Source: Artemia franciscana (lineage: Eukaryota; Arthropoda; Branchiopoda; Anostraca; Artemiidae). From it: DNA of 64,000 nucleotides. Location of the stretch: assembly GCF_032884065.1 (NCBI RefSeq), contig NC_088872.1:34630917-34694916 (forward strand), given 5' to 3'. Position 1 is the first letter of the stretch; each line of letters starts with the position of its first letter. Below, in pieces: positions 14,483 to 62,372 of this stretch. The position numbers and the translations under genes were made by a program. The notes under the pieces are model-generated. The model saw nothing but the letters and a program-made list of their open reading frames with translations. It searched no databases and was not told the origin of the DNA.

Positions 14483-16302
<1,820 letters not shown>

Positions 16303-16347
16303 TACTAGCAATTTTTGGAGACCAACCAACTTCGACTAAAAGATTCA

Positions 16348-19185: not shown

Positions 19186-19189
19186 AATA

Positions 19190-19297: not shown

Positions 19298-21175
19298 ATT
19301 CATACCGGGATATGTATTCTCCCACTTATCATATCTATCATAGTGACAATTGGAGCATAAGAATCATCTAGTGTCAGAGTCACAAATCTATTCAGGAATT
19401 ACAGTATTTAATTTGTACTGCATTTCCTCTAGCCAATTTAAATGGATTGCAGAATCTACATTTTTCATCATACTCATCAACAACTGTCCAATTCTCACAT
19501 GATGACCAGCTGCCCAGTGTATGCATGCAGAGAGGATATATATAGAACATTTTTTTAGTGTTGACTCTCTTACATCAAAATGAAACTGATTTACGATCGA
19601 TAAGGAGGGTCTTTTGTATTGCTAGAGAGGAGTAATCGAGTTACATAACAATTCAAAATCAAATGATTCTTTTTGAAAAAAATCTTCTAAGTTATCGATT
19701 TATTTGTTGTTCTTATGAACAATCATTTGGATACAGTCTTAGATGAACATTGAATTTCTGATGTAGGGTTCAAAAACAAATCCAAAATACTTTTTTGTTT
19801 TTTCTCGATTAATATGCCAATAAATTAAGTAAATGCGTTTGGACTACGACTCATAAGTATCATACAATAATTTAAAGCCAGCAATTCATTTTCCATATTA
19901 CCATCATGCATTCTTTCAGAAAATATATTCTTTTGTACTGATAAATTTTTAAAACGATCATGCCGATGCAGACTTTTTATTACCATCATTTATTACCATT
20001 TATTATCATTTATTACCATCTGGTTACTAGGGAAGTAAATATATATTTTGCTAGTATGTCTTGTCAAATGGAACTTTGATTAAAAAGATATATTCAAGCT
20101 CTTTTCTCTCTGAATTCTACTTTCTTACTAGTATAAAAAAAAGGAGGATAAATATCCTCCTGAGCCATTGCTGGCGCATAGGGCGTCGAGTCGACGTTTC
20201 AGTTGCTGAGTGTTGCTACGGTTGCTACGGTTGTTTGTTGGTTGTAAGGTTGGTTGCTACGGTTGTTTGGTATAGTTTTATGGCTATATACAAATGAGAT
20301 TATCATGAAAGTATTCAAAAGAGATGTATCCTCTGTCAATCTGGTTACTAGGGAAGGTCCATAACCAGGTTTGGTTGCTAGGTAAATCGGTTATACAAAT
20401 TATGTGCCTGATTGAATTTTGTAAATATGGTTAACGATATATGTTTTACGGCCAGAGGCGTACGCCAGATTGGTACGTTACCGTACCAATTCGGTAAAAA
20501 CCAAATTTTCTTGTTTTTTCAACAGTTGAAGTGTACACCTAATTCTTCCTCCAAAAACAGTTAAAATCATAACGATAACTTTTTTTTGACTGATCCAAAT
20601 TATTACCATCAATATATTCTGATGTTTCATTTAAAGCAGTTTGAAGTCTGTTCATTTGCTTTATTTTCAGTTTTGCTGCGAAACAAAAGTGCTCTCCATT
20701 TAAAATTTTCTCAAAGTATTTTAAATCTTTCTCACTAGTATAAAATACACTGAAAATCCAGCATTATGTCGGATCTGGTTGCTGTGGTTAGTTGGTAGAG
20801 TCTTATGGCTATTTACAAATGAGATTGGCATGGAGTACGCAAAAGAGATGTACTCTTTGTATTATATACAATCTTGTTTCTAGGGAAGGTCCATGACCAG
20901 GTGTGGTTGCTAGGTAAATCAGTTATGTAAATTATGTGCCTCTTGGAATTATGTAAATATGGTTAACGATTTATGTTTTACGGCCAGAGGTGTACTGCAG
21001 ATTGGTACGTTACCGTACCAATTCGGTAAAAACGACATTTTCTTGTTTTTTCAACAGTTGAAGTGTATAGCTAATTTTTCCTCCAAAAACAGTTAAAACC
21101 AAGACGATACCTTTTTCTTAGAAATAAACTAAATACTAATTCAGGGTACTTTCCATACATACCGGGATATGTATT

Positions 21176-21412
21176 CTACCACTTATCAAATCTATCATAG
21201 TGACAATTGGAGCATAAGAATCCTCTAGTGTCAGAGTCATAAATCTCTTCAAGACAGGAATTACAGTATTTAATTTGTACTGCATATCCTCTAGTCAATT
21301 TAAATGGATTGCATAATCTATACCTTTCATCATACTCATCAGCAATTTTCCAATTCTCATATGATGACCAGTTGCCCAGTGTATACGTGCAGAGAGGACA
21401 TATATAGAACAT
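21176..21412 (-). pseudogene. Cys-rich zinc-finger-like exon, array A
   Basis: 78 codons from MFYICPLC to HYDRFDKW then TGA. The array consensus has four CxxC pairs (CPLC, CRLC, CNSC, CSNC), enough for two zinc sites; here the first Cys of CRLC is Tyr. Other copies continue past DKWEY to a basic tail GKRYRRGFNCFWRKN. I do not recognise the family. The pairing with a CARD-like exon upstream suggests one multi-exon gene. Loss of a different Cys in each copy argues that most copies are decaying. Confidence 0.5.
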
Positions 21413-21585
21413 ATTTTGAGTGTTGACTCTCTTAAATCAAAATGAAACTGACTTATGATCGATAAAAAGAGTTTTTTTTCTATTTCTTGAGAGGAGTAAT
21501 TGAGTTAAATAAAAATTCAAAGTCAAATGATTCTTTTTGAAAAAAATCTTCTAATTTGTCGATTTATTTGTTGTTCTTATAAAAA

Positions 21586-21800
21586 TCATTTGGATACAGT
21601 CATAGATGAACATTGAATTTCTCATGTAGTGTTCAAAGGCAAATCCAAAATACCTTTTTGTTTTGCCTCGATTAATATGCCAATAAATTGAGTAAATGCG
21701 TTTGGACTACGACTCATAAGCATCATACAATAATTTAAAGCCAGCGATTCATCTTCCATATTATCATCAAGTATTCTTTCAGAAAATATATTCTTTTGTA
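21586..21800 (-). pseudogene. CARD-like exon, array A unit 2
   Basis: Begins after an acceptor-like TTTATCAG and reads QKNIFSER(I)LDDNMEDESL, then the SRSPNAFTQF...LDL block. A TCA to TGA change interrupts it just before EIQCSS. Confidence 0.45.
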
Positions 21801-22099
21801 CTGATAAATTTTAAAAACGATCATTCCGATGCAGACTATTTATTACCATCATTTATTACCATTTATTATCATTTATTACCATCCCGTTACTAGGGAAGGT
21901 CCATGACCAGGTTTGGTTCCTAGGTAAATCGGTTATGCAAATTATGTGCCTGGTATGCAAATTCTTTGCAAATTATGTGCCTGCTGGAATTATGTAAATA
22001 TGGCTAATGATATATGTTTTACGGCCAGAGGCGTACGCAAGATACGTTACCGTAACAATTCGGTAAAAACCAAATTTTCTTGTTTTTTCTACAGTTGAA

Positions 22100-22448
22100 G
22101 CGTATACATAGTTCTTCCTCCAAAAACAGTTAAAACCACGACGATACCTTTTTCCTAGAAATAAACTAAATACTAATTCATGGTACTTTCCATTCATACC
22201 GGGATATGTATATTCCCACTTATCAATTTTATCGTAGTGACAATTGGAGCATAAGTTTCCTCTAGTGTCAGAGTCTTAAACTCTTCAAGACAGGAATTAA
22301 AGTATTTAATTTGTGCTGCAAATCCTCTAGTCAATTTCAATGGATTGCATAATCTACACTTTTCATCATACTCATCAACAATTGTCCAATTCTCACATGA
22401 TGACCAGCTGCCCAGTTTATGCATGCAGAGAGGAAATATATAGAACAT
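22100..22448 (-). pseudogene. Cys-rich exon, array A unit 3, frameshifted
   Basis: Starts MFYIFPLCMHKLGSWSSCEN and keeps CRLC. One Cys of CPLC is Phe and one of CNSC is Phe. A deletion after CLEEF shifts the frame, and the C-terminal text GKRYRRGFNCFWRKN resumes in another frame to about 22100. Confidence 0.5.
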
Positions 22449-22622: not shown

Positions 22623-22839
22623 TCATTTGGATACAGTCTTAGATAAACATTGAATTTTTGATGGGGTGTTCAAAAACAAATCCAAAATACCTTTTTGTTT
22701 TGTCTTGATTAATAGGCAAATAAATTGAGTAATTGCCTTTGGACTACGACTCATAAGCCTCATACAATGATTTAAAGCCAGCGATTCATCTTCCATATTA
22801 TCATCAAGCATTCTTTCAGAAAATATATTTTCTTTTGTA
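22623..22839 (-). pseudogene. CARD-like exon, array A unit 3
   Basis: 62 codons from MLDDNMEDESLALNHC. The helix-like block MSRSPKAITQF...TKQKGILDLFL fits the second half of a CARD (death-fold, caspase recruitment) domain, whose signature is RGP.AF..F...L..T.Q..L..LL. The acceptor AG present in other units is mutated here. Upstream, the first half of a CARD is suggested by a stretch reading IIVIEEKGLHRNDRF before a TAA. Confidence 0.5.
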
Positions 22840-23398
22840 GTGATAAATTTTAAAAACGATCATTCCGATGCAGACTATTTATTACCATCATTTATTACCA
22901 TTTATTATCATTTATTACCATCATGTTACTAGGGAAGGTCCATGACCAGGTGTAGTTACTAGGTAAACCGGTTATGCAAATTATTTGCCTGTTGGAATTA
23001 TGTAAATATGGTTAACGATATATGTTTTACGGCCAAAGGCGTACGGCAGATTGGTACGTTACCGTACCAATTCGGTAAAAAAATTTCTTGTTTTTTTTCA
23101 ACAGTTGAAGCGTATACCTAATTCTTCCTCCAAAACCAGTTAAAAACTAATTCTTCCTAATTTTTCCTTCAAAACCAGTTATAACCACAACGATACCTTT
23201 TTCTTAGAAATAAACTAAATACTAATTCAGGGTACTTTCCATTCATACCGCAAAGAGGGCATATATAAAACATTTTTTCAGTGTTGACTCTCTTACATCA
23301 AAATGAAACTAACTTAAGATCGAGAAAGAGAGTTTTCTTCTATTTCTAGAGAGGAGTATTCGAGTTCTATGTTGAAAGTCTTCTATGTACAAAGTCTT

Positions 23399-23608
23399 CT
23401 ATGTTGTCGGTTTATTTTTTGTTCTTATGAAAAATAATTCGGATAGAGTCTTAGATGAACATTGAGTTTCTGATGTATTGTTCAAAAGCAAATCCAAAAT
23501 ACCTTTTTGTTTTGTCTCGATTGAAATGCCAATAAATTGAGTAAATGCGTTTGGACTACGACTCATAAGCACCATACAATAATATAAAGCCAGCAATTCA
23601 TATTCCAT
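23399..23608 (-). pseudogene. CARD-like exon, array A unit 4
   Basis: MEYELLALYYCMVLMSRSPN and on through the AFTQF/ILDLLL block. Unlike most copies it reads through the usual TGA (SELFFIRTKNK). The start region has a deletion that removes the LDDN text. Confidence 0.45.
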
Positions 23609-23895
23609 AGAAAATATATTCTTTTGTACTGATAAATTTTAAAAACGATCATTCCGATGCAGACCTTTTTCTTCAATCACAATAATCTGCTCGATTTATG
23701 CTTCAAAAATAAATACATTTTTTTAATCCTAACACTCTCACAGCTGACTACAATTTATGGATAAAGGCCAAATAAGCTTCTCTCTACTTCGAGAATATCC
23801 CTAGAGAGAGGAACGGTAACCTCGTAAAAATATCTAACAAGAAACACCTATTGACTTAGAAACACTTTTATTTTATAATTAAAATGATATATTAC

Positions 23896-23990
23896 TCATT
23901 TGACATACAGATCCAAGTTATTACCATCAATATATTTCAATGTTTCATTTAAAGCAGTTTGAAGCCTGTGCATGTGCATTATATTAAGTT
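23896..23990 (-). CDS. Putative terminal exon with poly(A) signal, array-associated gene
   Basis: After an acceptor-like TATTGCAG the frame reads LNIMHMHRLQTALNET, then YIDGNNLDLYVK and TGA (23898-23896). AATAAA follows on the minus strand at 23872-23867. The same exon with the same signal recurs at about 38880-38990 and 43390-43500. Truncated copies without the signal lie at about 20590-20680, 36370-36450 and 41940-42020. Upstream on the same strand (24014-24110) an open stretch contains AWDEIYAKYLTSLRKFKMES. Function unknown. Confidence 0.35.
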
Positions 23991-24957
23991 TTTCTGCAAT
24001 ACAAAACTGCTCTCCATCTTAAATTTTCTTAAAGATGTCAGATATTTTGCATAGATCTCATCCCATGCAAGGCATAGTGGAGATGCTCTTGTAACTTTTA
24101 CTGCTTCGTTTAGTTTTCTTGTTATTTATCATTGCTACTGCCAGCTCTAATATCTATTTCCAATAGTGTAAACAAACCACTCATGTTTTGCAAGTATGTC
24201 TTGTCAAATGAAACTTTGGTGTAAAAGATATATTCAAGCTCTTCTCTCTCTGAATTCTACTTTCTTACTAGTATAAAATACACTGAAAATCCAGCAGTAT
24301 ATTGGATCTGGTTGCTACGGTTGGTTGGTAGAGTTTTATGGCTATATACAAATGTGATTGTCATGGAAGTACACAAAAGAGATGTACCCTCTGTAGTATA
24401 GACACTCTGGTTCCTAGGGAAAGTCCATGACCAGGTGTGGTTGCTAGGTAAGCCGGTTATGCAAAGTATTTGCCTGTTGGAATTATGCAAACATGGTTAA
24501 CGATATATGTTTCACGGCCAGAGGCGTAGAGTCTGTAGTATAGACAATCTTTGAGCCCCTATGCTGTAAGATCAGGACTTAATATAGTAACACTGCTCAC
24601 ACTCATACCACTAATATTCAACCCTTACAAATCCTCACTGAACATGAAGGTAAGGTAATTTTAGGCTATTTCTCAAAATTTTGCCTCAAGGCAATACCAC
24701 CTAAAGTCGGAACCAAAATCATGCACTTCTGGATTTGTTAATTTTTTTGCGAAAAATAACCGCCAGCGTTACCGTTGGTAGTTTCTATGCTCCAAAGTTA
24801 CTATGTAGCAGTAATTTTTGGTTTATCTTGCCTAAGAAATGAATAGAATATTAAAGCAAGAAAATTAGTTAGGTGTTCTTTTTTGAGCTTCCAAGAAATT
24901 ATTCCATATATTTTTTTTTATGAAATGAGGAGGTATTATTAAATCTCCTTCGATGTT

Positions 24958-25269
24958 TTTGTTCTACTGATTGAGTCAGTGGTGGTTCTGGCCTCTTTTG
25001 GGCCCAGGCAAGATCTAGATTGGTACTGCCCTGATTCCCACATAATTTTGCGGCCAAATTTTAACAAAATTTTCATATATTAAAAATAATGTATATTTTT
25101 GAACTATACAATAATATACTTTTAATTTGTTATTTCAATTATTAAATTATTTTAAATCATTGTAGTTTAATTATTTCAATAATTATTACTGAATTATTAT
25201 TTTTCAATTTTTTTTTATTTTATAACTTATTTTAGTAATTAATTAATGATTTATTAATCACTTTTATTT
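24958..25269. other. Spacer between duplications A and B
   Basis: Very AT-rich, with runs of ATTATTT. No gene or repeat family recognised. Confidence 0.5.
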
Positions 25270-25790: not shown

Positions 25791-28700
25791 TATAAAGATC
25801 AAGGAAGGGGAAAGCGGACGGAAAAGAAAAGTAGCCTTTACTGACCTATTTTGCGCTCTTTGAAGTGAGCAGATAAGAGATTTAATAGTAATACTCCATC
25901 TTGTGATTTTTTTTAATAGAATTAATGTTATTATTCTTATTTGAATGTAATACAAGGCTAATTTATGCGAGTGTTTAATAAGTGATTTTAAGCAATTCGC
26001 TTTTGAAGGCAGGATTGGCTTGCGGGTTTATTCGTCATAGTTAATTGTAGAAGAGACAAGATTGGCTGGAGAATTTACATATTTGACATAATGGTAATGA
26101 AAGGGGCTGAAAAATGAATTCGAGTCTAGGACAATAATATTTCGTGGAGATTGCACTGTCCATAAGGGAATTTTATCCTTACATTAGTATGTTAGCTATT
26201 TTGTTCCTTGGATTTTACTTTCTTGTTTTTTCTCTTAGATGCTTTCTTGATTTTCTATGAATTGTTTATAGTATATTATTGCTAACAAGTTAAAAGGATG
26301 TTTCCTTTAGGATGTAAAATAATTTGAATTACACCATTAAGTAATTGTCTTCATACACTACTAACCTATGATTGTTAATCCTGGTTCAAATAAGACCATT
26401 TTATGTATCAGATTGAATTAGCTCAAATTAAGCAAATGAGATAAATCGTGAGCTGGTTCTCTTTGAGGTATGAAATGATGACTTTTGAATGTACTGAATT
26501 GTTTTTTAATGTAATGAGACTCAGCCTGCTCATTCATTTTGCTGTTTTACGAGGTTAGTCAGTTGTCCAATGCTACATACTCTTTGTACTTCAAGATAGA
26601 ATTGTACGATAAATGGCACATTATCTTCGCGCAAGGCACTACTAGATTTACTTACGACCAAGTTAATGTCAGCTGTATGTTTTTCTTTCTTCTGTTTTTA
26701 ATGATTCGATATAACAGAGCAAAAAGCAGAATATAAAGATAAAGAACGGTTAAAGAACAGCAGAATATAACGGTTAAAAAGCAGACTATAACGGAGATTC
26801 TGCTGTTTAACGACAGCTATTAAATGCAAGTTGAATAATGAGTTTAATAATTCGATATAGCTTTTAGAAAATTCCTAATATATTTAATGGAAAACTCGAT
26901 ATATCCCTAGGTCATGTGCAGTTAAATTTAATATGGGTTTATCCTCGGGTCGTACGGCTTGTTCTGCAAACAGTAATATGTTTGGGGTCATATTGATTGG
27001 TCTTAATTGTATTAAATATAATAGTAATGGGTTGGGAGTGGCAAGGCTGTTCAATGTGGTGCATATGTCAATTTTTGCATGTTGTCACGAATGACTTTGC
27101 GATTTCATTACAGGACTTACCAGGGAGGGTGGCAATGGGCAGAAGATGTTTTTGTATATTTTTCTAAGAATGTTGGAAAAATTATTCTTAAAATTTATTT
27201 TTGTTCTTTCCTTTTTATTGTTCTATTTACACTAATTTTAAAACACTACTTTCTTTCTATAAATTTCATGAACAATAAGAAATACAGCTTAAATGCTAAT
27301 AATCGGGAATAGAACAAACAGCTAAAATAATACTAAGTGAGTGAAAAAACGTATAATTTAAATTAAATTACGTAAAAAACTTTTGTAACTTAAAAACTTC
27401 CTTCTTTCTAGCCCCAATGTGCGTATCCATATGATGGATATGCGTAACTATATGAAGGGTAGTAATGACCATAATAACGGTAAGGATAATAAGTATAATG
27501 ATGAGTTGCTGCTCCTTTCAGAGCGTCTTCGACAGGTGCGTCCATTTCAGATGCTTCTCTTCTCAGCCTGTAACTAGGATCGTCAAAGGGAAGATCACCT
27601 CTGTTAGCTGTTAACTCTATATCTTGAAAATCAATAGCTGGTTCCCTTGGATTATCAGGTTTGGCTAATACCGCAGTGACATAAAGGGCAACAAGTAGAA
27701 TCTAGAAAAAAATAAAGTATTTATATTGATATAGATAAGTATATAAAAAATGTGTATATATCCTTTGGAGATCTATATTCTACTAATCCTATAAGGACGT
27801 CAAGAACAACAAGCAAAATCAAGAACAAAGTTCAATATGAATGTTATGTGAGCATTTCTATATTCAAATACCAATTTCAATTGGAATATCAGTAATGCAT
27901 TTAATAATTTACAGAACTCATCCTTGACTAAGTTTTACCACCAATCTTATCATGTCTCGGATTGTGAATAGAGCTTACAAAGAACATGGTAACAAATTTT
28001 TGTTGATGATTTTTTTTTTAAGTTCCAAGATTTAATTTGGGGATTTAGTTCATAGGATATCTATTAAGGGAAATAAAACTGCTCAAAAACTGCAGTTTTA
28101 TAATAAATGTGTCAATAGTGTACTGAACATCAGCAGGGAAGAAAAAAAAAGAAAATTATTCAAATGACTTTCTTTGACAACTTCATCGATTTCATCTTTC
28201 CAGATTTAATTACAAAAAGCAAAAAAAAAGAAAAAAACTGATAAAATAAAATTAATTCTGTTAAAGTCTACCATACTAAAAATAAATCAGAAGAGCATTT
28301 CAATTTGAAAAATTCCAAACATTCAAACATTTCACAGAGCCTTCTGAAACGAATAGAAATTGAGAGACAAAGTTCAAAAGACCTCGGATAAAAGTGAAAT
28401 TTTTAAAATAAAAAATGGGACATTATGTCATTATTGAATCAGAACAATACATATATAAATAATTGCCAAGTAAAGTAGATATGTACTTATCAGTTAAATG
28501 ATCCACGTTAAATGCAATAAAACTATACTTGGTTGGAATAAATCAAGACATTTAAGAATTGTCTTTTTTTTTTATTCATTTCGCATCAAATAAGTTCAAT
28601 TATTATTGTTGCTATAATCTTAAATGCTCATTACAATTTCAGCTTACAATTGTATTAATTTATTTCGTTTTACTGTGGTACTTGTTCATAAGTTCATAAG

Positions 28701-28868
28701 CTTATTAATCCACATTCACAAACAAATAAACAATTTAAACAACATTTTCGCACAGGAGAAAACCGATGAGGGATTGTAGTCGGTTGAAAGTCCACGTAAC
28801 TTCTCGCCTTTTAACTCTACTATTTACTTAAACGGCAACTATTTAATTAAAACTGTTCTAAATAAACA

Positions 28869-28993
<125 letters not shown>

Positions 28994-29243
28994 GTGTGTG
29001 TAAAAATAGATAAATATATAAATAACTGAATTTAAAACAAATAAAAGATAAATAAAAATATAAAAGTAAAATAACAATAACAAGTCCAGTTCCCATCACT
29101 CTTCAGTACTCAACCATGTTACTTTAAAATAATTGATATTTCAAAAGTTTTCGAAAATGAACTTCAAAAGTTGCGGATTGACTGTAAAACTACTAACAAA
29201 AACTAATTTACAATTTAAAATGACATGAATAAGCTACTTACAT

Positions 29244-29633
29244 CTTGAGCCTAGTCATGGCGCTGGTCATGAAGATCTTTTCTTAGATTTAAATATTAAT
29301 ATTTGTGATAATAATAAATTAAGTTTTATAATGTATAATAAAACGGATGATTTTGATTTTGAAGTGATTAGTTTCCCATTCCCTGAAAGTAATATACACT
29401 CAAATATCACATATTCAGCGTTTTTCTCACAGTTACTTCGTTATGCAAGGATTTGTAGTAATTATATTGATTTTAAAAATAGATATAAAATCTTAAGCCA
29501 AAAATTGATATCAAGAGGTTTTTCTGCAAATAAATTAACTTGGCAATTTAAAAAATTTAGTTTTCATTATAACGAACTTTTAAATAAATATCAAAAGAAT
29601 TATCTAGAAATACTTAAAGAAATTTTTAACTAA
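29244..29633 (+). pseudogene. Reverse transcriptase C-terminal fragment
   Basis: 130 open codons ending EILKEIFN before TAA, with no start codon at the junction. The pattern FLDL...K.DDF.F..I.FP......TY..F.SQL.RYARIC is shared with RT-type retroelement proteins that I recall only generally, so the clade is not named. Confidence 0.5.
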
Positions 29634-30357
29634 TTTCGGAGGTTCGAGAAATGTTGTCACAGCGCCATTTATTTTGAATTGTGTTTCTAATTGAGCGGAT
29701 TTTTTTTTTAAAATTAGCCACATGGTAAAGATGAATTCTATAATTGTTTAATTCATTCAGGTTTTTTGCAATGTGTTAATATTTGTGATTTGGTAAAATT
29801 TATAATATTTAGTTTACCTATTGTTGCTAAAGGGAGGGATATATTAACAAGATAAGCTTGTTTTGGTTTTACTTGGTTGTTTAACATTTGCTGTTTTTTT
29901 TTTCATAGGCATGTATTTTGAGGGTGATACCTGACGCGGGGATGCCATGGATATTCTGAGGTAGCCACAACACTGTGCTGGGTAGAGAATTTAGAGTGGC
30001 GAAACCCTATATAGGCCAGTGTATTCTCCTGATGAGCCCTTATGTTGGGTGTTGCCTCTGAATTATTTGTCTAAATTATTTTTTCTATTGTTCGGTAAAT
30101 GACGACTTATACTTATTGACGACATGACTGCCTGTCCATGGATTATTCTTTATGGTTGATTGTGTGTGGCTATGCTGTTTGACCTATGTGATTGTATGGA
30201 TGAGTAGGGTTAAGGCCTCATTCAAGTGCTGGTCTATATTAATCACTAATTTAGGAAAACAGTCTTCCTTTTCTCCTTCTGTCTCTTTTTTTTTTCTTTT
30301 TTTTTTTTTTTTTTTTTTTTTTTGTGCTGTAGCATTGGTGATTTCTCTTTTCATGAT
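29244..30357 (+). mobile_element. Retroelement insertion, 5' truncated
   Basis: Absent from duplication A, where exon 1 is continuous. Coding text starts exactly at the junction (29244) and runs open for 130 codons to 29633: FLDLNINICDNNK, FPFPESNIHSNITY, then SQLLRYARICSNYIDF. This looks like the C-terminal (thumb-side) part of a reverse transcriptase of unassigned clade. The long 3' UTR contains 'gcgaaaccctatataggccagtgtattctcctgatgagccc'-type text, a T-rich tract (30288-30323) and an end 'tttcatgatt'. The last 220 bases recur at 59565-59785. No clear target duplication is seen. Confidence 0.65.
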
Positions 30358-30415
30358 TTTTCATTATTAGCAATTTTTGCCAATAACCAACAACCAACTT
30401 CAACTAAAAGATTCA

Positions 30416-30448
30416 ACTGATTATGTAAACTATAGAAGTCCTTATATA
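30416..30448 (-). promoter_or_regulatory. Core promoter of Tyr-rich gene copy 2
   Basis: TATATAAG starting at 30448 and TCAGT initiator with A at 30418, spacing 30 as in copy 1. Now cut off from exon 2 by the insertion. Confidence 0.6.
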
Positions 30449-30926
30449 TATTTGAAAATACAGACTGTATTTTTCTAAATCAAACTAGTTTAAGGTGAAA
30501 AGATACCGGGGACTTTTTCAATTGACGTTGGATAACGCAGTGGTAATGAACCGAGATTAATTAAAAAAAAGTAGTGGTACAATTTCTTTTAGGGTAGAGC
30601 CCTATCAAAAGCAAGATACTTGGGTAAATCAATGCACAAAATACAGGTTAACTAACTGTGATTGTAGATTTTTGGGGTGAGAGGGAGGTGTATTTATATG
30701 ATCTATTGAGCCTGAATTTTTGGGGAGGAATTTAGCTTTAGTCCCTCTCTAATGATGCCCCTGCAGGCACAAACTATGAATTACTCTTGCGTGCTATTTA
30801 GTTGCTATGTAGTGACGGAAGAAGGAGAAAATGTCAAACTTCAACCGTGTACATGCTATGGCAGTATTCCTTCTTCAAAGAGGGTGAAGAATGCAAAAGA
30901 TTGCTCCCCAGGGGACAGTGGGGGGT

Positions 30927-32220: not shown

Positions 32221-35200
32221 TTTTATGTGAAACTTTTTTTAAATGAAAAGAACCAGCTACTTATGGATATACCTGGATATAATTCAATATTTCTAAATAG
32301 AAAGATAACAAAAAAGGGGGGGCTAGGATTTTATGTATTGAGTAATCTGGCAGTTGTAAGAAGAGATGATCTGTCTAAAAACGTTGAACGGGTATTTGAA
32401 TCTCTGTTCATAGAATTGGCTACTAGCTCCAATGAGAAGATAATAATTGGTGAAATATACAGATCTCCAAGCGGATCAACAAAACAATTTATGGAAATAT
32501 TAGAGATTGTTCTTGGGAATGTATTGTCTGAAAAGGCAGAAATAATTTTAATGGGTGATTTTAACGTTGACATGATGGATATATCATCGAGTCAGGCTTG
32601 TGATATACTGGCACTAGTAATCTCGTCTGGGTTAACTCCCTGTATAAATATCCCTACACGAATTTCGAACCAATCTGCAACCTTAATTGACAATGTGTTC
32701 TCATCTATACATTCTGTAAAAAATGAAGTGCTACTATCAGATACATCGGATCATTTCCCAGTAGGAGTTTTACTTCCACTCCCCCGGCTTGCCCGCCGAA
32801 TAGCCCCTGATAATAAACCAAGATTCCGATATACACCAGCAAACATCGAAAAGCTCAAAGATGATTTATTCGCTACGTCATGGGAGTGTACAATACCTGA
32901 TAGGGTGAGCTTAGAAAATTATAATAAGGTATTTGATTTTTTTATGAAACAGTAAAGGAGAAATTGCCGATCACCCCAACCAAGTCTTTCTAAGGGATCA
33001 ACACCCATAGCCCCATGGACTACAGCTGGAATACTGAAGTCAATAAAGAGGAAACAAAAGCTTTGGAAAGAGTATAGGAACAGACCAAGTGATGCTAAAT
33101 TAGAGGCTTTTAAACTATACCGGAAAATACTTAAAACTCTGATTCGAAAAGCTAAAATTACATATTTTTCCCGAAGGTTTGCGGATTGTGGCAAAAATAT
33201 TAAGAAAACTTGGGATGTAATTAAGGAAGTTACGCAACCATCGGCAAGACCTAGAAAGCTCCCTAAATCACTTAATGTTCAGAATCAACTTTTCTTGGAC
33301 GAAGACCAAGTGCGACATCAGATGACTAAATTTTTTGCTGAGGTTGGGAAAACAACGGCGTTAGGTGTGGTTCCTTTTTCAAATTCTAGGTCTTGGAAGC
33401 AGTTCCTTGGTCCTTCCTGTGCAAAGTCGATGGTTCTTGAGTCAGTTACGGAGCAGGAACTGATAATAATAATTTCGTCATTGAAAAATTCTTCATCTGG
33501 ATTCGACCAAATTCCTGCCAAATTAATTAAACAGATTCTTCCCTCAATTATTAAACCACTGTGCCACTTGGTTAACCAGTCATTCAAGCTCGGAATATTC
33601 CCTCAGCGTCTCAAGTTAGCACGAGTGATAGCACTATTTAAAGGAGGTGACCGGGAGGACCCGGGGAACTATAGGCCTATATCTCTTTTGTCTGTTTTTT
33701 CTAAAATATTTGAAAAGGCTATGCTAAAGCGTTTGCTGAGTTTCCTAGATGCGAAGAAGTTTTTTCATCGGCACCAATTTGGTTTTCGGGAGAAGTGCTC
33801 AACAGAACACGCATGTAATATGCTTCTTCATTTTTTACGACAGTCTTTAGACTTCGGCCTTATCCCTGCGGCAATATTCCTTGATGTGAAGAAAGCTTTT
33901 GACAGCCTCACACACGAGATACTTATTGGTAAGTTGTCACACCAAGGTGTTCGTGGGGAAGCTCTGTCCTGGTTTTCTTCATTCCTAACTGGCCGATCCA
34001 TTGCAGTAGAAGCTTCTGATGAGCATGTTCCAGTTGAATATGGAGTGCCACAAGGCTCAGTTCTTGGGCCATCCCTTTTCCTCATATATGTCAACGACCT
34101 CTATCGACTATTTAGCAACCCACGATCTGATTTCTGTTGTCATTTGTGTCAGAAAGGAGATGCTGTGGTTGGAGCCTTGGATACACCTGGTCAACATGAA
34201 GAACTCTTTGCTTTCGCCGACAACACCACCCTGGGGGCTGCAGCAGCTGATGAATCGTCTCTTATCCTCAAGCTACAATTGATGACAGAAAGCATATATC
34301 GTTGGTTTGATGCAAATTTATTAGCTTTGAATGTAAAAAAATCGTTTCTTCTTATATTCTCCCGCATAGGCAAAAGCTGCCCTACAGTGACAGAGCTTAA
34401 AACATCTAAGGGATCCATATCCCGTCCAGCTGACCGGTTTATTTGATTCCTTGGGATACTTCTGGATGAAAATCTATCTTTCAAACGGCATGCTGAGTCA
34501 ATGAGATTAAAGGTTTCTCGAGGCCTTGGAATTATTCGGAAGCTGAAGCGAGTCTTTCCTTTTTCTATCCTTCGTCTATTATACTTTTCTCTTATTTACC
34601 CTTATTTATGCTACTGCTCGTCAGTTTGGATGTCAACATTTCCATCTGTACTTACACCTTTACATAATCTCCAACTGAAAGCAGCAAAAATCCTTCAGTC
34701 TACCACCCATATTTCTGTTGAACTTCTGAACACCTCTCTTTCATTGCATTTCAGTATTTCCGTGGAGACCTTCCATCAAGTTTTTTCGGGCTTCTTGAAA
34801 TTGTTCGAAATGTCAGTCCTTATGAAACTAGAAACAAGGATGATGTGCAAGTGCCATCCACCCCTGCAGTGCGCTCGGACTTTGGTCTGATAGTTGCTGT
34901 CGGACATGCCTGGAATTCCATTCCTGTTGGGATTCGACAGTCCTGTACCATAGGCTCCTTCAAGAAACGGTTGAAGAATTTTTTAATTAAAATAAAATAA
35001 ATTAAATTATAATATTGATCAGTTATTTATATTGTTTTGTTATCAAGATTTATTTAATTTAATTAGTTATTTAGATTGAATTTAATTATTTAGTTTAGGG
35101 TGGTGTGAGTGTCGGATCCTCGATGTATGTATATATATATTTTTTTAAGTAGGTGGTGCGGAGATCAGTTGTATTCGGGTGGGGATTGGTGAGTAGACTC

Positions 35201-35347: not shown

Positions 35348-36839
35348 TTCAAGACAGGAATTACAGTATTTAATTTGTACTGTATTCCCGCTGTGTATTC
35401 ATGCATTCCCTGTGTATGCATGCAAAGAGGACATATATAAAACATTTTTTTCAGTGTTGACTCTCTTACATCAAAATGAAGCTGATTTACTATCGATAAA
35501 GAGGGTTTTTTGTATTGCTAGAGAGGAGTAATCGAGTTACATAACAATTCAAAATCAAATGATTCTTTTTGAACAAAATCTTCTAAGTTGTCGATTTATT
35601 TGTTGTTCTTATGAAAAATCATTTGAATAGAGTCTTAGATGAGAATTGAATTTTTGATGTACTGTTCAAAAACAAATCCAAAATACCTTTTTGTTTGGTC
35701 TCGATTAATATGCCAATAAATTGAGTAAATGCGTTTGGACTACGACTCATATGCATCATACAATAATTTAAAGCCAGCGATTCATCTTCCATATTCCATC
35801 ATGCGTTCTTTTGTACTGATAAATTTTTAAAACGATCATTCCGATGCAGACTTTTTATTACCATCATTTATTACCATCTGGTTACTAGGGAAGTAAATAT
35901 ATATTTTGTTAGTATGTCTTGTCAAATGGAACTTTGACGAAAAAGATATATTCAAGCTCTTTTCTCTCTGAATTCTAGTTTCTTACTAGTATAAAATACA
36001 CTGAAAATCTAGCATTATATCGGATCTGGTTGCTACGGTTGTTTGGTAAGGTTTTATGGCTATATACAAATGAGATTATCATGGAAGTACGCAAAAGAAA
36101 TGTACCCTCTGACAATCTGGTTACTAGGGAAGGTCCATGACCAGGTGTGGTTGCTAGTTAGACCGGTTATGCAAATTATGTGCCTGCTGGAATTGTGTAA
36201 ATATGGTTAACGGTATATGTTTTACGGTCAGAAGCGTACGCCAGATTGGTACGTTACCGTACCGATTCGGTAAAAACCAAATTTTCTTGTTTTTTCAACA
36301 GTTGAAGCGTATACCTAATTTTTTCTCCAAAAACAGTTAAAACCACAACGATAACTTTTTCTTAGACAGATCCAAATTATTACCATCAATATATTCTGAT
36401 GTTTCATTTAAAGCAGTTTGAAGTCTGTGCATGTGCATTATTTTCAGTTTTGCTGAGAAACAAAACTGCTCTCCATTTTAAATTTTCTCAAAGTATTTTA
36501 AATATTTCTTACTAGTATAAAATACACTGAAAATCCAGCATTATATCGGATCTGGTTGCTTGGTAGAGTCTTATGGCTATTTACAAATGAGATTGTCATG
36601 GAAGTACGCAAAAGAAATGTACCCTTTGTAGTATAGACAATCTTGTTACTATGGAAGGTCCATGACCAGGTGTGGCTGCTAGTTAGACCGGTTTTGCAAA
36701 TTATGTAACTAATGGAATTATGTAAATATGGTTAACGATATATGTTTTACTGCCAGAGGCGTACGCCAGATTGGTACGTTACCGTACCAATTCGGTAAAA
36801 ACCAAATTGTCTTGTTTTTTCAACAGTTGAAGCGTATAC

Positions 36840-37181
36840 CTAATTCTTCTTCCAAAAACAGTTAAAACCACGACGATACCTTTTTCCTAGAAATAAACAA
36901 AATACTAATTCATGGTACTTTCCATTCATACCGGAATATGTATATTCCCACTTATCAATTTTATCGTATTGACAATTGGAGCATAAGTTTCCTCTAGTGT
37001 CAGAGTCGTAAAACTCTTCAAGACAGGAATTACAGTATTTTATTTTTGCTGCAAATCCTCTAGTCAATTTAAATGGATTGCATAATCTACACTTTTAATC
37101 ATACTCATCAACAATTGTACAATTTTCATATGATGACCAGCTGCCCAGTTTATACATGCAGAGAGGACATATATAGAACAT
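36840..37181 (-). pseudogene. Cys-rich exon, array B
   Basis: Keeps CPLC, CRLC, CNSC and CSNC-type pairs and the tail GKRYRRGFNCFWKKN. A TAA replaces the Glu-rich stretch before KCRLC (EYD-stop), so only the second half stays open (75 codons from 37067). Confidence 0.5.
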
Positions 37182-39590
37182 TTTTTCAGTGTTGACTCTC
37201 TTGCATCAAAATGAAAGCGACTTACGATCGATAAAGAGAATTTTTTTCTCTATTTCTAGAAAGGAGTTTTTGAGTTACATAACAATTCAAAATCAAATGA
37301 TTCTTTTTGAACAAAATCTTATAAGTTGTCGATTTATTTGTTGTTCTTGTGAAAAATCATTTGGATACAGTCTTAGATAAACATTGAATTTCTGATGTGG
37401 TGTTCAAAAGCAAATCCAAAATACCTTTTTGTTTTGTCTCGATTAATATGCCAATAAATTGAGTAAATGCCTTTTGACTACCACTCATAAGCATCATACA
37501 ATAATTTAAAGCCAGCGATTCATCTTCTATGTTATCATCAAACTTTCTTTCAGAAAATATATTCTTTTGAACTGATAAATTTTAAAAACGATCATTCCGA
37601 TGCAGACTATTTATTACCATCATTTATTACCATATATTATCATTTATTACCATCCCGTTACTAGGGAAGGTCCATAACCATGTGCGGTTGCTAGGTAAAC
37701 CGGTTATGCAAATTATTTGCCTGTTGGAATTATGTAAATATGGTTAACGATATATGTTTTGCGGCCAGAAGCCGTACGGCAGATTGCTACGTTTCCGTAC
37801 CAATTCGGTAATAACAAATTTTCTTGTTTTTTCAACAGTTGAAGCGTATACCTACTTCTTCCTCCAAAACCAGTTAAAAACTTATTCTTTCTAATTTTTC
37901 CTCCAAAACCAGTTATAACCGCGACGATACCTTTTTCTTAGAAATAAACTAAATACTAATTCAGGGTACTTTCCATTCATACCGGGAAATGTATTCTCCT
38001 ACTTATCAAATCTATCATAGTGACAATTGGAGCAAAAGAATCCTCTAGTGTCAGAGTCGTAAATCTCTTCAAGACAGGAATTACAGTATTTAATTTGTGC
38101 TGCATATCCTCTAGTCAATTTAAATGGATCGCATAATCTCTACTTTTCATCATATTCATCAACAATTGTTCAGTTCTCACATGATGACCAGCTGACCAGT
38201 GTATGCATGCAAAGAGGACATATATAAAACATTTTTTCAGTGTTGACTCTCTTACATCAAAATGAAACTAACTTGAGATCGAGAAAGAGAGTTTTCTTCT
38301 ATTTCTAGAGAGCAGTATTCGAGTTACAAAACAATTCAAAATCAAATGATTCTTTTTGAACAAAGTCTTCTAAGTTGTCGGTTTATTTTTTGTTCTTATG
38401 AAAAATCATTTGGATAGAGTCTTAGATGAACATTGAGTTTCTGATGTATTGTTCAAAAGCAAATCCAAAATACCTTTTTGTTTTGTCTCGATTAAAATGC
38501 CAATATATTGAGTAAATGCGTTTGGACTACGACTCATAACTCATAAGCATCATACAATAATATAAAGCCAGCGATTCATATTCCATATTATCATCAAGCA
38601 TTCTTTCAGAAAATATATTGTTTTGTACTAATAAATTTTAAAAACGATCATTCCGATGCAGACCTTTTTCCTCAATCACAATAATCTGCTCGTTTTATGT
38701 TTCAAAAATGCATCATGTTTTTAATCCTAACACTCTGACAGCTGACTACAGGCCAACTAAGCTTCTCTCTACTTCGAGAATATCCCTAGAGAGAGGAACG
38801 GTAACCTCGTAAAAACATCTAACAAGAAACACCTATTGACTTAGAAACATTTTTATTTTATAATTAAAATGATATATTACTCATTTCACATACAGATCCA
38901 AATTATTACCATCAAAATATTTCGATGTTTCATTTAAAGCAGTTTAAAGTCTGTGCATGTGCATTATATTAAGTATAATGGCAAAACAAAACTGCTCTCC
39001 ATTTTAAATTTTCTCAAAAAGGTCACATATTTTGCATAGATCTCATCCCATGCAAAGCATAGTCGAGATACTCTTGTAAGGTTTCCTGTTTCGTTTAGTA
39101 TGCATGCTATTTATCATTGCTACTGCCAGCTCTACTATCTATTTCCAGTAGTGTAAACAATTTCAGTCATATTTTGCTAGTATATCTTGTCAAATGAAAC
39201 TTTGATGAAAGAGATATATTCAAGCTCTTCTCTCTCTGAATTCTACTTTCTTACTAGTATAAAATACACAGAAAATCGAGCAATATATTTGATCTGGTTG
39301 CTAAGGTTTTTTGGTAGAGTTTTATGGCTATATACAAATGAGATTTTCATGGAAGTATATAAAAGAGATGTACCCTCTGTAGTAAAGACAATCTGGTTGC
39401 TAGGGAAGGTCCATGACCAGGTGTGGTTGCTAGTTAGACCGGTTATGCAGATTATGTGCCTGCCGCAATTATGTAAATATTGTTAACGATATATGTTCTA
39501 AGGCCAAAGGCGTACGCCAGATTGGTACGTTACCGTACCAATTCGGTAAAAACCAAATTTTCTTGTTTTTTCAACAGTTGAAGCGTATAC

Positions 39591-39932
39591 CTAATTCTTC
39601 CTCCAAAAACAGTTAAAACCACGACGATACCTTTTTTCTAGAAATAAACTAAATACTAATTCATCATACTTTCCATTCATACCGGGATATGTATATTCCC
39701 ACTTATCAATTCTATCATAGTGACAAATGGAGCATAAGTTTCCTCTAGTGTCAGAGTCGTAAAACTCTTCAAGACAGGAATTACAGTATTTAATTTGTTC
39801 TGCAAATCCTTTAGTCAATTTAAATGGATTGCATAATCTACACTTTTCATCATACTCATCAACAATTGTCCAATTCCCACATGATAACCAGCTGCCCAGT
39901 TTATGCATGCCGAGAGGACATATATAGAAAAT
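39591..39932 (-). pseudogene. Cys-rich exon, array B, longest open copy
   Basis: Open from MHKLGSWLSCGN to GFNCFWRKN and stop (105 codons), with CRLC, CNSC and CSIC pairs. The normal ATG (MFYI) is mutated to ATT and the second Cys of CPLC is Gly. It gives the best view of the full exon: a Cys-rich module of about 75 residues, then a basic tail. Confidence 0.55.
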
Positions 39933-40106
39933 TTTTTCAGTGTTGACTCTCTTACATCAAAATGAAAGTGACTTACGATCGATAAAGAGAGTTTTTTCTC
40001 TATTTCTAGAGAGGAGTTTTCGAGTTACATAACAATTCAAAATCAAATGATTCTTTTTGAACAAAATCTTCTAAGTTTTCGATTTATTTGTTGTTCTTAT
40101 GAAAAA

Positions 40107-40321
40107 TCATTTGGATACAGTCTTAGATAAACATTGAATTTCTGATGTAGTGTTCAAAAGCAAATCCAAAATATCTTTTTGTTTTGTCTCGATTAATATG
40201 CCAATAAATTGAGTAAATGCCTTTGGACGACGACTCATAAGCATCATACAATAAGTTAAAGCCAGCGATTCATCTTCCATATTATCATCAAGCATTCTTT
40301 TAGAAAATATATTCTTTTGTA
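40107..40321 (-). pseudogene. CARD-like exon, array B
   Basis: Acceptor TTTATCAG, then QKNIFSKRMLDDNMEDESLA and MSRRPKAFTQFIGILIETKQ followed by DILDLLLN. The stop is at 40107. The match to the last three helices of a CARD is good, with R-P-x-AF-x-x-F and L-x-x-LL positions kept. Confidence 0.5.
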
Positions 40322-41141
40322 CTGATAAATTTTAAAAACGATCATTCCGATGCAGACTATTTATTACCATCATTTATTATCATTTATTACCATCCCGTTA
40401 CTAGGGAAGGTCCATGACCAGGTGTGGTTGCTAGGTAAACCGGTTATGCAAATTATGTGCCTATTGGAATTATTCAAATATGATTAACGATATATGTTTT
40501 ACGGCATGAGCCGTACGGCAGATTGGTACGTTACCGTTACCAATTCGGTAAAAACAAATTTTCTTGTTTTTTCAACAGTTGAAGCGTATATCTATTTCTT
40601 CCTCCAAAACCAGTTAATAACTAATTCTTCCTAATTTTTCCTAAAAAACCAGTTAAAACCACGACGATACCTTTCTCTTAGAAATAAACTAAATACTAAT
40701 TCAGGGTACTTTCCATACATACTGGGATATGTATTCTCCTACTTATCAAATCTATTATAGTGACAATTGGAGCAAAAGAATCCTCCAGTGTCAGAGTCAT
40801 AAATCTCTTCAAGACAGGAATTACAGTATTTAATTTGTGCTGCATATCCTCTAGTCAATTTAAATGGATTGCATAATCTATACTTTTCATCATACTCATC
40901 AACAATTGTTCAATTCTCACATGATGACCAGCTGCCCAGTGTATGCATGTAAAGAGGACATATATAGAACATTTTTCAGTGTTGACTCTCTTACATCAAA
41001 ATGAAACTGACTTAAGATCGAGAAAGAGAGTTTTTTTCTATTTCTAGAGAGGAGTATTCGAGTTACATAACAATTCAAAATCAAATAATTCTTTTTGAAC
41101 AGTCTTCTAAGTTGTCGATTTATTTTTGTTGCTATGAAAAA

Positions 41142-41356
41142 TCATTTTGATACAGTCTTAGATGAACATTGAATTTCTGATGTATTGTTCAAAAGCAAAT
41201 CCAAAATACCTTTTTGTTTTGTCTCGATTAATATGCCAGTAAATTTAGTAAATGCGTTTGGACTACGACTCATAAGCATCATACAATAATTTAAAGCCAA
41301 CGATTCATCTTCCATATTACCATCATGCATTCTTTCAGAAAATATATTCTTTTGTA
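41142..41356 (-). pseudogene. CARD-like exon, array B
   Basis: QKNIFSERMHDGNMEDESLA, then SRSPNAFTKFTGILIETKQK and GILDLLLNN. Closest to the consensus apart from the HDG change. About 170 bases downstream on the minus strand lies a Cys-rich exon (40972-40717). Confidence 0.5.
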
Positions 41357-44300
41357 CTGATAAATTTTAAAAACGATCATTCCGATGCAGACTTTTTATT
41401 ACCGTCATTTATTACCATTTATTATCAGTTATTACCATCTGGTTACTAGGAAAGTAAAAATATATTGTGCTAGTATGTCTTGTCAAATGGAACTTTGATG
41501 AAAAAGATATATTCAAGCTCTTTTCTCTCTAAATTCTACTTTCTTACTAGTATAAAACACACTGAAAATCTAGCATTATATCGGATCTGGTTGCTACGGT
41601 TGTTTAGTATAGTTTTATGGCTATATACAAATGAGATTATCATGGAAGTACGTAAAAGAGATGTACCCTCTGTAGTAACCCAATCTGGTTACTAGGGCAG
41701 GTCCAAGACAAGGTGTGGTTGCTAGGTAAACCTGTTATGCAAATTGTATGCGTGTTTGAATTAAGTAAATATGCTTAACGATGCATGTTTCACGTCCAGA
41801 GTTGTACGGCAGATTGGTACGATATCGTATCAATTTGGTAAAAACTAAATTTTCTAGTTTTTTCAACAGTTTAAACTTATACCTAATTCTTCCTCCAAAA
41901 ACAGTTAAAACCACGAAGATAACCTTTTCTTAGACAGATCCAAATTACTACCATCAATATATTCCGATGTTTCATTTAAAGCAGTTTGAAGTCTGTGCAT
42001 GTACATTATTTTCAATTTTGCTGCAAAACAAAACTGCTCTCTATTTTAAATTTTCTCAAAGTATTATAAATCTTTCTTACTAGTATAAAATACACTGAAA
42101 ATCAAGCATTATAACGGATCTGGTTGCTATAGTTGGTTGGTAGAGTTTTATGGCTATTTACAAATGAGATTGTCATGGAAGTACGCAAAAGAGATGTACC
42201 CTCTGTAGTATAGACAATCTGGTTACTAGGGAAGGTCCATGACCAGGTGTGGTTGCTAGGTAAACCGGTTATGCAAATTATGTGACTGTTGGAATTATGT
42301 AAATATGGTTAACGATATATGTTTTACGGCCAGAGGCGTACGGCAGATTGGTACGTTACCGTACCAATTCAGTAAAAACGAAATTTTCTTGTTTTTTCAA
42401 CAGTTGAAGTGTATAGCTAATTCTTTCCAAAAACAGTTAAAACCAAGACGATACCTTTTTCTTAGAAATAAACTAAATACTAATTCATGGTACTTTCCAT
42501 GCATACCGGGATATGTATTCTCCCACTTATCAAATCTATCATAGTGACAATTGGAGCATGAGAATCCTCTAGTGTCAGAGTCATAAATCTCTTAAAGACA
42601 GGAATTAAAGTATTTAATTTGTACTGCATATCCTCTAGTCAATTTAAATGGATTGCATAATCTACACTTTTCATCATACTCATCAGCAATTGTCCAATTC
42701 TCATATTATGACCAGTTACCCAGTGTATACATGCAGAGAGGACATATCTAGAACATATTTTGAGTGTTGAATCTCTTACATCAAAATGAAACTGACTTAC
42801 GATCGATAAAAAGTTTTTTTCTATTTCTAGAGAGGAGTAATCGAGTTAAATAACAGTTCAAAATCAAATGATTATTTTTGAACAAAATCTTCTAAGTTGT
42901 CGATTTATTTGTTGTTCTTATGAAAAATCATTTGGATACAGTCTTAGATGAACATTGAATTTCTGATGTAGTCTTCAAAAGCAAATCCAAAATACTTTTT
43001 GTTTTGTCTCGATTAATATGCCAATAAATTGAGTAAATACGTTTGGACTACGACTCATAAGTATCATACAATAATATAAAGCCAGCGACTCATCTTCGAT
43101 ATTATCATCAAGCTTTCTTTCAGAAAATATATTCTTTTATACTGATAAATTTTAAAAACGATCATTTCGATGTTGACTTTGTTTCTCAATCACAATAATC
43201 TGCTCGATTTATGTTTCAAAAATGCATCCATTTTTTAAAATCCTTACACTCTCACAGCTGACTACTGGCAAACTAAGCTTCTCTCTACTTCGGGAATATC
43301 CCAGGAGAGAGGAACGGTAATCTAGTAAACATATCTAACAAGAAACACCTATTGATTTAGAAACATTTTTATTTTATAATTAAAATGATATATTACTCAT
43401 TTTCACATACAGATCCAAATTATTACCATCAATATATTTCGATGTTTCATTTAAAGCAGTTTGAAGTCTGTGCAGGTGCATTCAATTAAGTTTTTCTGCA
43501 AAACAAAACCGCTGTTCATTTTAAATTTTCTCAAAGATGTCACATATTTTGCATAGATCTCATCCCTTGCAAGGCATAGTCGAGATACTCTTCTAACTTT
43601 TACTGCTTCGTTTAATATTCTTGTTATTTATCATTGCTACTGCCAGCTCTACTATCTATTTCCAGTAGTGTAAACAAACCAGTCATATTTTGCTAGTATG
43701 TCTTGTCAAATGAAACTTTGATGAAAAAGTTATATTCAAACTCTTTACTTTCTGAACTCTACTTTCTTACTAGTATAAAATACACTGGAAATCCAGCATT
43801 ATATCGGATTTGTTTGCTAAGGTTGTTTGGTAGAGTTTTATGACTATATACAAATGAGATTGTCATGGAAGTACGCAAAAGAGATGTACCCTCTGTAAAA
43901 TAGACAATCTGGTTACTAGGGAAGGTCCATGACCAGATGTGGTTGCTAGGTAAACCAGTTATGAAAATTAAATGCCTGTTGGAATTATGTAAATATGGAT
44001 AACGATATATGTTTTACGGTCAGAGGCGTACGGCAGATTGGTACCTTACCGTACCAATGCGATAAAAACCAAATTTTCTTGTTTTTCAACACTTGAAGTG
44101 TATACCTAATTCTTCCTCCAAAAACAGTTAAAACCATGACGAATCCTTTTTCTTAGAAACAAACTAATATTAATTCAGGGAAGTTTCCATTCATACCAGG
44201 ATCTGTATTCTCCCACTTATCAAATCTACCATAGTGAAAATCTGTACACAAAAGAGATGTACCCTCTGTAGTATAGACAATATGGTTACTAGGGAAGATC

Positions 44301-44833
44301 CTTGACCAGGTGTTTTTGCTAGGTAAACCGGTTATGCAAATTATTTGCCTGTTGGAATTATGCAAATATGGTTAACGATAAATGTTTCACGGCCAGAGGC
44401 GTAGAGTCTGTTATATAGATAATCTTAGAGCCCCCATGCTGTAAGATAAGGACGTAATATAGAACACTACTCACACTAATACCACTAATATTCAACCCTT
44501 ACAAATCCTCACTGAACATGAAGGTAAGGTAATTTTAGGCTATTTCTCAAAAATTTGCCTCAAGGCAATACCACCTAAAGTCGGAACCAAAATCATGCAA
44601 TTCTGGAATTGCTAATTTTCTTTGCGAAAAATAACCGCCAGCGTTACCGTTGTTAGTTTCTATGTTCCAAAGTTACTATGCAGTATTAATTTTCGGTTTA
44701 TCTTGCCTAAGAAATAAATAGAATATTAAAGCAAGAACATTAGTATTGGTGTTCTTTTTTGGGCTTCCAAGAAATTATACCATATATTTTTCGCTATGAA
44801 ATGAGGAGGTATTATTAAATCTCCTTCGATGTT

Positions 44834-62371: not shown

Positions 62372-62372
62372 T

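What the first reader, a model, noticed from the sequence alone, without database searches (positions are those of the whole stretch)
19298..44560. Tandem arrays of CARD-like and Cys-rich exons
On the minus strand each unit encodes (R)SPNAFTQFIGILIETKQ-type text matching the C-terminal half of a CARD fold, with an upstream stretch (IIVIEEKGLHRNDRF...QKNIFSERML) fitting the N-terminal helices. An exon with four CxxC pairs follows. A death-fold domain combined with a zinc module and tandem amplification is the kind of architecture seen in innate immune or apoptotic regulators. At least ten CARD-like exons occur in the two arrays. Most carry stops or frameshifts, so a functional source gene may lie nearby.
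Basis: partly seen in the sequence, partly recalled or inferred. Interest (0 to 1): 0.8.

Follow-up and report, generated by a model that had tools for sequence, protein, structure and literature searches.

The report
Fossil viral CARD genes in arrays
The repeats are decayed tandem copies of a small gene block, one gene of which encodes a cell-death-type CARD domain, and the block most likely comes from an old virus-like element scattered through this genome rather than from a host immune gene family.

Summary
In detail: two minus-strand arrays (about 19.3-24.5 and 35.4-44.2 kb) contain ten CARD-like and at least eight Cys-rich copies, mostly broken. Pfam's own CARD model is far weaker (1 of 25 copies, E 0.06). 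The host-gene reading fails: the genes recur genome-wide (1284-1433 first-look candidates, 150 scored per search), and in 16 of 21 dispersed loci they lie beside hexon-, protease-, pX- or polymerase-like genes. One 10-kb locus adds a PolB above Pfam's cut-off and a chromodomain. I conclude: a Polinton/Maverick (adintovirus-like) element carrying a CARD gene. The window holds only a locally amplified early-end fragment; 7 of 10 CARD copies lack the domain's start. Inferred ancestral function: a CARD-only decoy of host death signalling. I found no report of a CARD in a Polinton, within limited searches.

The parts
19750..19998 (-). CARD-like copy, array A, domain start missing, stop inside
   Evidence: tblastn E 3e-17; core and truncating junction
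21613..21837 (-). CARD-like copy, array A, domain start missing
   Evidence: tblastn E 5e-19
22650..22856 (-). CARD-like copy, array A, domain start missing, frame shifted at its beginning
   Evidence: tblastn E 2e-12
23462..23668 (-). CARD-like copy, array A, with degraded CARD start at 23695-23718
   Evidence: tblastn E 1e-10
35646..35876 (-). CARD-like copy, array B, domain start missing
   Evidence: tblastn E 1e-13
37384..37659 (-). CARD-like copy, array B, domain start missing
   Evidence: tblastn E 2e-18; CARD profile on 37360-37581 E 0.018
38439..38682 (-). CARD-like copy, array B, frameshifted; degraded CARD start at 38694-38717
   Evidence: tblastn E 3e-12
40110..40355 (-). CARD-like copy, array B, domain start missing; open piece 40110-40331 (74 aa)
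   Evidence: tblastn E 1e-19; CARD profile E 3.3e-4, best window segment among the rows printed
41169..41396 (-). CARD-like copy, array B, domain start missing
   Evidence: tblastn E 2e-20; CARD profile on 41145-41366 E 0.0036
42993..43196 (-). CARD-like copy, array B, with CARD start DNA at 43208-43231
   Evidence: tblastn E 2e-12
19301..19550 (-). Cys-rich frame, array A
   Evidence: tblastn E 3e-25
21083..21415 (-). Cys-rich frame, array A
   Evidence: tblastn E 2e-45
22010..22448 (-). Cys-rich frame, array A, in three pieces
   Evidence: tblastn E 2e-35
36852..37181 (-). Cys-rich frame, array B
   Evidence: tblastn E 4e-42
37903..38232 (-). Cys-rich frame, array B
   Evidence: tblastn E 8e-43
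39594..39956 (-). Cys-rich frame, array B, open over 121 aa
   Evidence: the ORF listing; genome query
40643..40972 (-). Cys-rich frame, array B
   Evidence: tblastn E 1e-41
42352..42759 (-). Cys-rich frame, array B
   Evidence: tblastn E 2e-45
23920..24190 (-). ORFx remnant (upstream early frame), array A
   Evidence: tblastn E 2e-13
38905..39160 (-). ORFx remnant, array B
   Evidence: tblastn E 5e-13
43422..43692 (-). ORFx remnant, array B
   Evidence: tblastn E 1e-17
36523..36560 (-). One of 8 copies of a TATA-like upstream stretch that aligns with dispersed elements; promoter activity is a guess
   Evidence: pattern hits, up to 7 mismatches; alignment
12972..19369 (.). Left flank, matching 25898-32220 in four pieces: flank plus array A and flank plus array B look like one duplicated block
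   Evidence: self-BLAST 94-96% identity
24369..24961 (.). Right flank of array A, matching 44244-44837 right of array B
   Evidence: self-BLAST 92.8%

Best explanation
The arrays are a fossil. A Polinton/Maverick (adintovirus-like) provirus carried an early block, ORFx-CARD-Cys-rich, convergent with its late genes (protease-, hexon-, pX- and penton-like, then integrase and PolB). Related copies lie across this genome: 150 scored matches per search, 1284-1433 candidates. One degraded copy's early end (upstream stretch plus ORFx-CARD-Cys-rich) was tandemly amplified; it sits in a larger block that was duplicated here, and close relatives of the array lie on another large contig. Shown: CARD similarity, linkage to Polinton-type genes, dispersal, decay, and the array clade. 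Inferred: in the active element the CARD protein worked as a CARD-only decoy that binds host caspase or adaptor CARDs and delays death of the infected cell, with the Cys-rich protein as an early zinc-binding regulator. The confidence covers the origin; for the decoy step alone I would say about 0.5.
For: Smith-Waterman Z (100 shuffles each) to caspase-2 CARD is up to 11.9, median 7.8. CARD HMM over 2178 six-frame segments: all 37 rows printed (list cut there; 33 distinct places) are CARD-frame. Element: 16 of 21 dispersed 3.2-3.4 kb loci carry a hexon-, PRO-, pX- or PolB-like match, 15 of the 16 on the strand opposite CARD/Cys-rich. L061 holds a PolB piece (PF03175 E 2.2e-6, above cut-off), a chromodomain (E 1.5e-4) and penton-, pX-, hexon- and PRO-like frames, then the convergent early block. 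PolB recurs in L024 (50-71%) and the integrase C-terminus in L051 (44-57%). Array clade: C9 units are 89-90% like the window's, eight dispersed loci 71-76%.
Against: Hexon, pX, penton and PRO labels rest on recalled family patterns and gene order: Pfam and PDB searches gave them nothing convincing. Chromo is below its curated cut-off and rve is weak (E 0.11). No ATPase, terminal repeat or target-site duplication was established. 5 of 21 dispersed loci showed no late gene within their short flanks, and 3 of 21 showed no CARD match. Pfam's CARD model hits 1 of 25 members, at E 0.06, and nothing in the genome-wide search, whose 14 controls also rang in none. With 25 copies the PDB profile ranks caspase-9-type chains 6th, 7th and 9th of 10, E 0.53-1.4. 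Z to CED-3 and APAF1 CARDs is low (median 0.8). The CARD frame shows no third-position excess of substitutions, nor do pX and penton. Nothing tests function.
Confidence: 0.85

Rival explanations
1. A host CARD-zinc gene family, tandemly amplified, mostly pseudogenes, with a working host source gene.
For: CARD and Cys-rich frames are real and tandem.
Against: 1284-1433 first-look candidates genome-wide, 150 scored per search; virus-type genes beside 16 of 21 dispersed copies; the same convergent order in the five 8-10 kb loci read, though penton is seen in 3 of 5 and L053 lacks CARD and has rearranged extra pieces.
Confidence: 0.05
2. A non-coding satellite with chance protein resemblance.
For: In the window the units are tandem, decayed and mostly lack the domain start; the CARD frame shows no third-position excess.
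Against: The CARD frame in dispersed copies has 13 stops in 1343 codons against 65-150 in other frames, with the caveat that tblastn favours open pieces; shuffle and six-frame controls; at least the 20 fetched places are open over nearly the whole CARD.
Confidence: 0.06
3. The arrays have been kept by the host as a source of RNA against the element (for example a piRNA-type cluster), since units keep the upstream TATA-like stretch and lie in a duplicated repeat-rich block.
For: 8 copies of the TATA-like stretch in the arrays; array relatives on C9 (89-90%) as close to the window units as those nearby on C10 (about 89%); other mobile-element genes in the window.
Against: No RNA data; unequal crossing-over alone explains arrays; no selection on the array DNA was tested.
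Confidence: 0.12
4. The CARD gene is not part of the Polinton: a separate short repeat happened to insert into or beside Polinton copies.
For: 5 of 21 dispersed loci lack late genes in their short flanks; 5' ends of copies vary.
Against: Convergent strand in 15 of the 16 loci with late genes; alignable DNA runs from CARD/Cys-rich into the late genes between unlinked loci, e.g. L017 and L026.
Confidence: 0.07

Closest known systems
Polinton/Maverick endogenous viruses and adintoviruses
   Same: Viral-type PolB; integrase-like frames with chromodomain on the strand of the capsid-like genes (a C-terminal chromodomain is named as an adintovirus feature in PMC11071296, passages); penton/pX/hexon/PRO-like block; many copies in one genome.
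   Different: Carries a CARD gene beside a Cys-rich gene; capsid and protease labels not confirmed by a library; ATPase and termini not seen. The text of PMC11071296 (term search and passages only) mentions anti-apoptotic homologues and zinc-finger-like 'Ziftr' genes; 'caspase', 'CARD' and 'death domain' occur 0 times in it.
Ranavirus vCARD (frog virus 3)
   Same: A DNA-virus gene with a CARD motif. PMC4974522 (passages read) reports that the knock-out triggers more apoptosis and is more interferon-sensitive in frog cells.
   Different: Another virus family (iridovirus); its sequence was not compared here.
Caspase-2 / caspase-9 type CARDs
   Different: No protease domain was seen beside it; the open copies are about 90 aa.

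Membership tests
Polinton/Maverick | Viral-type PolB (protein-primed) | tested here: met
   L061:1536-1850 PF03175 E 2.2e-6, over the cut-off; L024 fragment 50-71% to L061's. Protein priming itself not testable. Not in the window.
Polinton/Maverick | Retroviral-like integrase on the capsid strand | tested here: inconclusive
   Chromo E 1.5e-4 but below the curated cut-off, rve E 0.11; same strand as hexon-like frames in L061 and L051.
Polinton/Maverick | Major and minor capsid proteins | tested here: inconclusive
   Conserved hexon-like frames in L051-L054 and L061, penton-like in L051, L054, L061, but no convincing Pfam or PDB match.
Polinton/Maverick | Adenoviral-type cysteine protease | tested here: inconclusive
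   Pattern recalled by eye; Pfam Peptidase_C57 E 0.047 for one piece; PDB none; the PF00770 genome search did not complete.
Polinton/Maverick | Packaging ATPase | not tested
   No ATPase search was made in CARD-bearing loci.
Polinton/Maverick | Terminal inverted repeats and target-site duplication | tested here: inconclusive
   5' alignments end at different points; the other end was not reached.
CARD (PF00619) | Profile similarity over nearly the whole domain | tested here: met
   hhalign probability 93.9, 76 columns, 0 of 200 shuffles; CARD HMM from recalled sequences best E 2.6e-6. Pfam's own model: 1 of 25 members, E 0.06.
CARD (PF00619) | Six-helix death fold in three dimensions | not testable with these tools
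CARD (PF00619) | Homotypic binding to another CARD | not testable with these tools
   Needs a bench assay.
Host CARD-zinc gene family | Gene copies in host gene context, not linked to virus-type genes | tested here: not met
   16 of 21 dispersed loci carry virus-type genes.

The most novel reading that the evidence does not exclude
A Polinton/adintovirus lineage captured a caspase-2-type CARD from an animal host and kept it as a stand-alone early gene paired with a Cys-rich zinc protein, convergent to its capsid genes, to block host death signalling. It spread to probably over a thousand places in one genome, and a host locus that tandemly amplified just this early block now serves as RNA-based memory against it.
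Probability: 0.15. Interest if true: 0.8.

Novelty: new variant of a known kind. Interest (0 to 1): 0.55.

Why it matters
Polintons are thought to be viruses, yet what they do to host cells is largely unknown. A CARD gene recurring in an abundant lineage suggests that these elements meet and counter host death signalling, which would imply a cell-infecting phase. The many dispersed copies form a fossil series in which the gain and decay of the CARD gene could be followed, and the tandem arrays show how one virus-derived block can become a local repeat that looks like an immune gene cluster.

Tried and rejected
Single CARD pieces against Pfam gave no CARD hit, so I moved to profiles of many natural copies. 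Host-gene and pure-satellite readings were set aside as above. Viral contigs (IMG/VR) held no relative of the CARD, Cys-rich, hexon-like (two queries) or PolB proteins; GenBank phage records held none of the hexon-like piece. PDB profiles of the Cys-rich, protease-like and hexon-like alignments gave nothing usable. The window has no Rfam match at gathering scores. The host species was not identified: a cuticle-family count that might have told arthropod from others did not complete. Genome-wide number of the hexon-like gene did not complete (with one query; 70, 75, 83, 88, 95 with another). Of the papers listed I looked inside only three (PMC11071296, PMC4974522, PMC9683012: term searches and passages).
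Full report
1. Observation. The window is G000:C10:34630917-34694916 of a 1.27 Gb genome. Self-comparison shows two minus-strand arrays, with units 81-93% alike, at about 19.3-24.5 kb (A) and 35.4-44.2 kb (B). A 30-base CARD core occurs ten times, four in A and six in B. Core spacings alternate between about 1.0 and 1.7-1.8 kb in B; in A they are 0.8, 1.0 and 1.9 kb. Seven of the ten CARD copies begin at the same short TAATAAATG-type junction and lack the start of the domain; three keep the start DNA. The Cys-rich frame is seen in at least eight units, and a third frame, ORFx, in six partial copies. CARD (17 stops in 765 codons, other frames 37-66) and Cys-rich (17 in 1025, other frames 34-168) are decayed but the most open frames; tblastn's choice of pieces adds to this.

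2. The larger block. 12972-19369 matches 25898-32220 in four pieces at 94-96%, and 24369-24961 (right of A) matches 44244-44837 (right of B) at 92.8%. So flank plus array look like one duplicated block in which the number of units later changed. A LINE-type retroelement (endonuclease and RT) sits between the second flank and array B. Related arrays lie on contig C9 (30.574-30.584 Mb) and just beyond the window on C10. Weighted identity to the window is 89.0-90.3% for four C9 loci, 88.7-88.9% for two C10 loci beyond the window, and 71-76% for eight dispersed loci, so the arrays look like one local amplification.

3. Dispersal. The Cys-rich frame gives 1433 first-look candidates and the CARD 1284 (876 with a shorter query); 150 were scored in each search, all listed at E below 0.001. 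They lie on many large contigs; identities outside the arrays are roughly 46-74%.

4. What the dispersed copies belong to. In the five 8-10 kb loci read, the order is ORFx, CARD, Cys-rich, then on the opposite strand PRO-, hexon- and pX-like frames, and in L051, L054 and L061 also a penton-like frame. L053 lacks a CARD match and has extra late-gene pieces. L061 continues with an integrase-like stretch (rve E 0.11, Chromo E 1.5e-4) and a PolB (PF03175 E 2.2e-6, above cut-off) on the late strand. L024 has PolB pieces 50-71% like those of L061, and L051 the integrase C-terminus at 44-57%. Of 21 dispersed short loci (the best-scoring ones outside the arrays; L020 and L025 are near-identical), 16 have at least one such gene and 5 have none in reach (L016, L019, L022, L023, L030). 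In 15 of the 16 it is on the strand opposite CARD/Cys-rich; L050 is the exception. L013, L021 and L027 show no CARD match. The names hexon, pX, penton and PRO are recalled from family patterns; Pfam and PDB gave them no convincing match. The defining gene set of Mavericks (PolB, integrase on the capsid strand, capsids, ATPase, adenoviral-like protease) is taken from passages of PMC9683012. Better preserved Polinton-like PolB loci of this genome (PF03175: 44 matches) show no CARD or Cys-rich match in the seven stretches looked at (L055-L060, L062; 4.3-10 kb, two overlapping, so only part of each element). None of the PRO, hexon, pX, penton, integrase or PolB queries matches the window at E 1e-3; in a search of the window alone one PRO-like match (E 0.002) at 59970-60068 lies outside the arrays and is probably chance.

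6. Coding history. Substitutions between dispersed copies favour third positions in Cys-rich, ORFx, PRO and hexon-like frames, as expected if the parent elements evolved as protein genes before insertion. They do not in pX, penton or the CARD frame (CARD 0.264, 0.207, 0.237 at 15-30% divergence). For CARD this may mean fast protein change or weak constraint; I cannot tell which.

7. Mechanism (inferred). The CARD gene lies in a block convergent to the late genes. A stand-alone CARD of about 90 residues without a visible effector domain suggests a competitor for CARD-CARD contacts in caspase activation. Frog virus 3 vCARD offers a parallel: its knock-out triggers more apoptosis (PMC4974522, passages). 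The Cys-rich partner has up to five CxxC sites and no usable PDB match, and none in Pfam for the pieces tried; an early zinc-binding regulator is a guess, helped only by mention of zinc-finger-like genes in some adintoviruses (PMC11071296, passages).

8. Novelty. Searches for Polinton with caspase recruitment or death domain gave 0 papers. Maverick with virus and caspase recruitment domain gave one paper, on neutrophils by its listing. Adintovirus with anti-apoptotic gave only PMC11071296. Nineteen papers hold Polinton, Maverick and apoptosis; I saw only their listing. The paper I looked up as the original adintovirus description is not held. So earlier notice cannot be excluded. I rate it a new variant of a known kind.

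Noticed in passing
60711-62372, minus strand: PIF1-like helicase frames (Pfam PIF1 E 2e-47 and 9e-9; Pif1_2B domain), perhaps a Helitron-type element, near long (TA)n runs.
   Followed up: partly
32212-34890, plus strand: LINE-type endonuclease and reverse transcriptase in three open frames (RVT_1 E 1e-27), between the duplicated flank and array B.
   Followed up: partly
17743-18531 and 31077-31571, plus strand: Frames that look by eye like a Penelope-type element with a GIY-YIG end; Pfam found no convincing family for the two frames at 17743-18531.
   Followed up: no
L022:1569-1877, L051:1720-2013 and others; window Cys-rich units: The +1 frame overlapping the Cys-rich gene is also unusually open (115 stops in 3500 codons against 444 in the +2 frame); possibly a second overlapping product.
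   Followed up: partly
L062:1-10000: Head-to-head copies of a better preserved Polinton-like element with long PolB open frames (787 and 778 aa shown); no CARD or Cys-rich match.
   Followed up: no
63479-63793, minus strand: Open frame for a Tyr-rich, secreted-looking protein (cuticle-like by eye); no Pfam match.
   Followed up: no
46117-46529: Tandem repeat of 141 bases, 2.9 copies, 91% matches.
   Followed up: no
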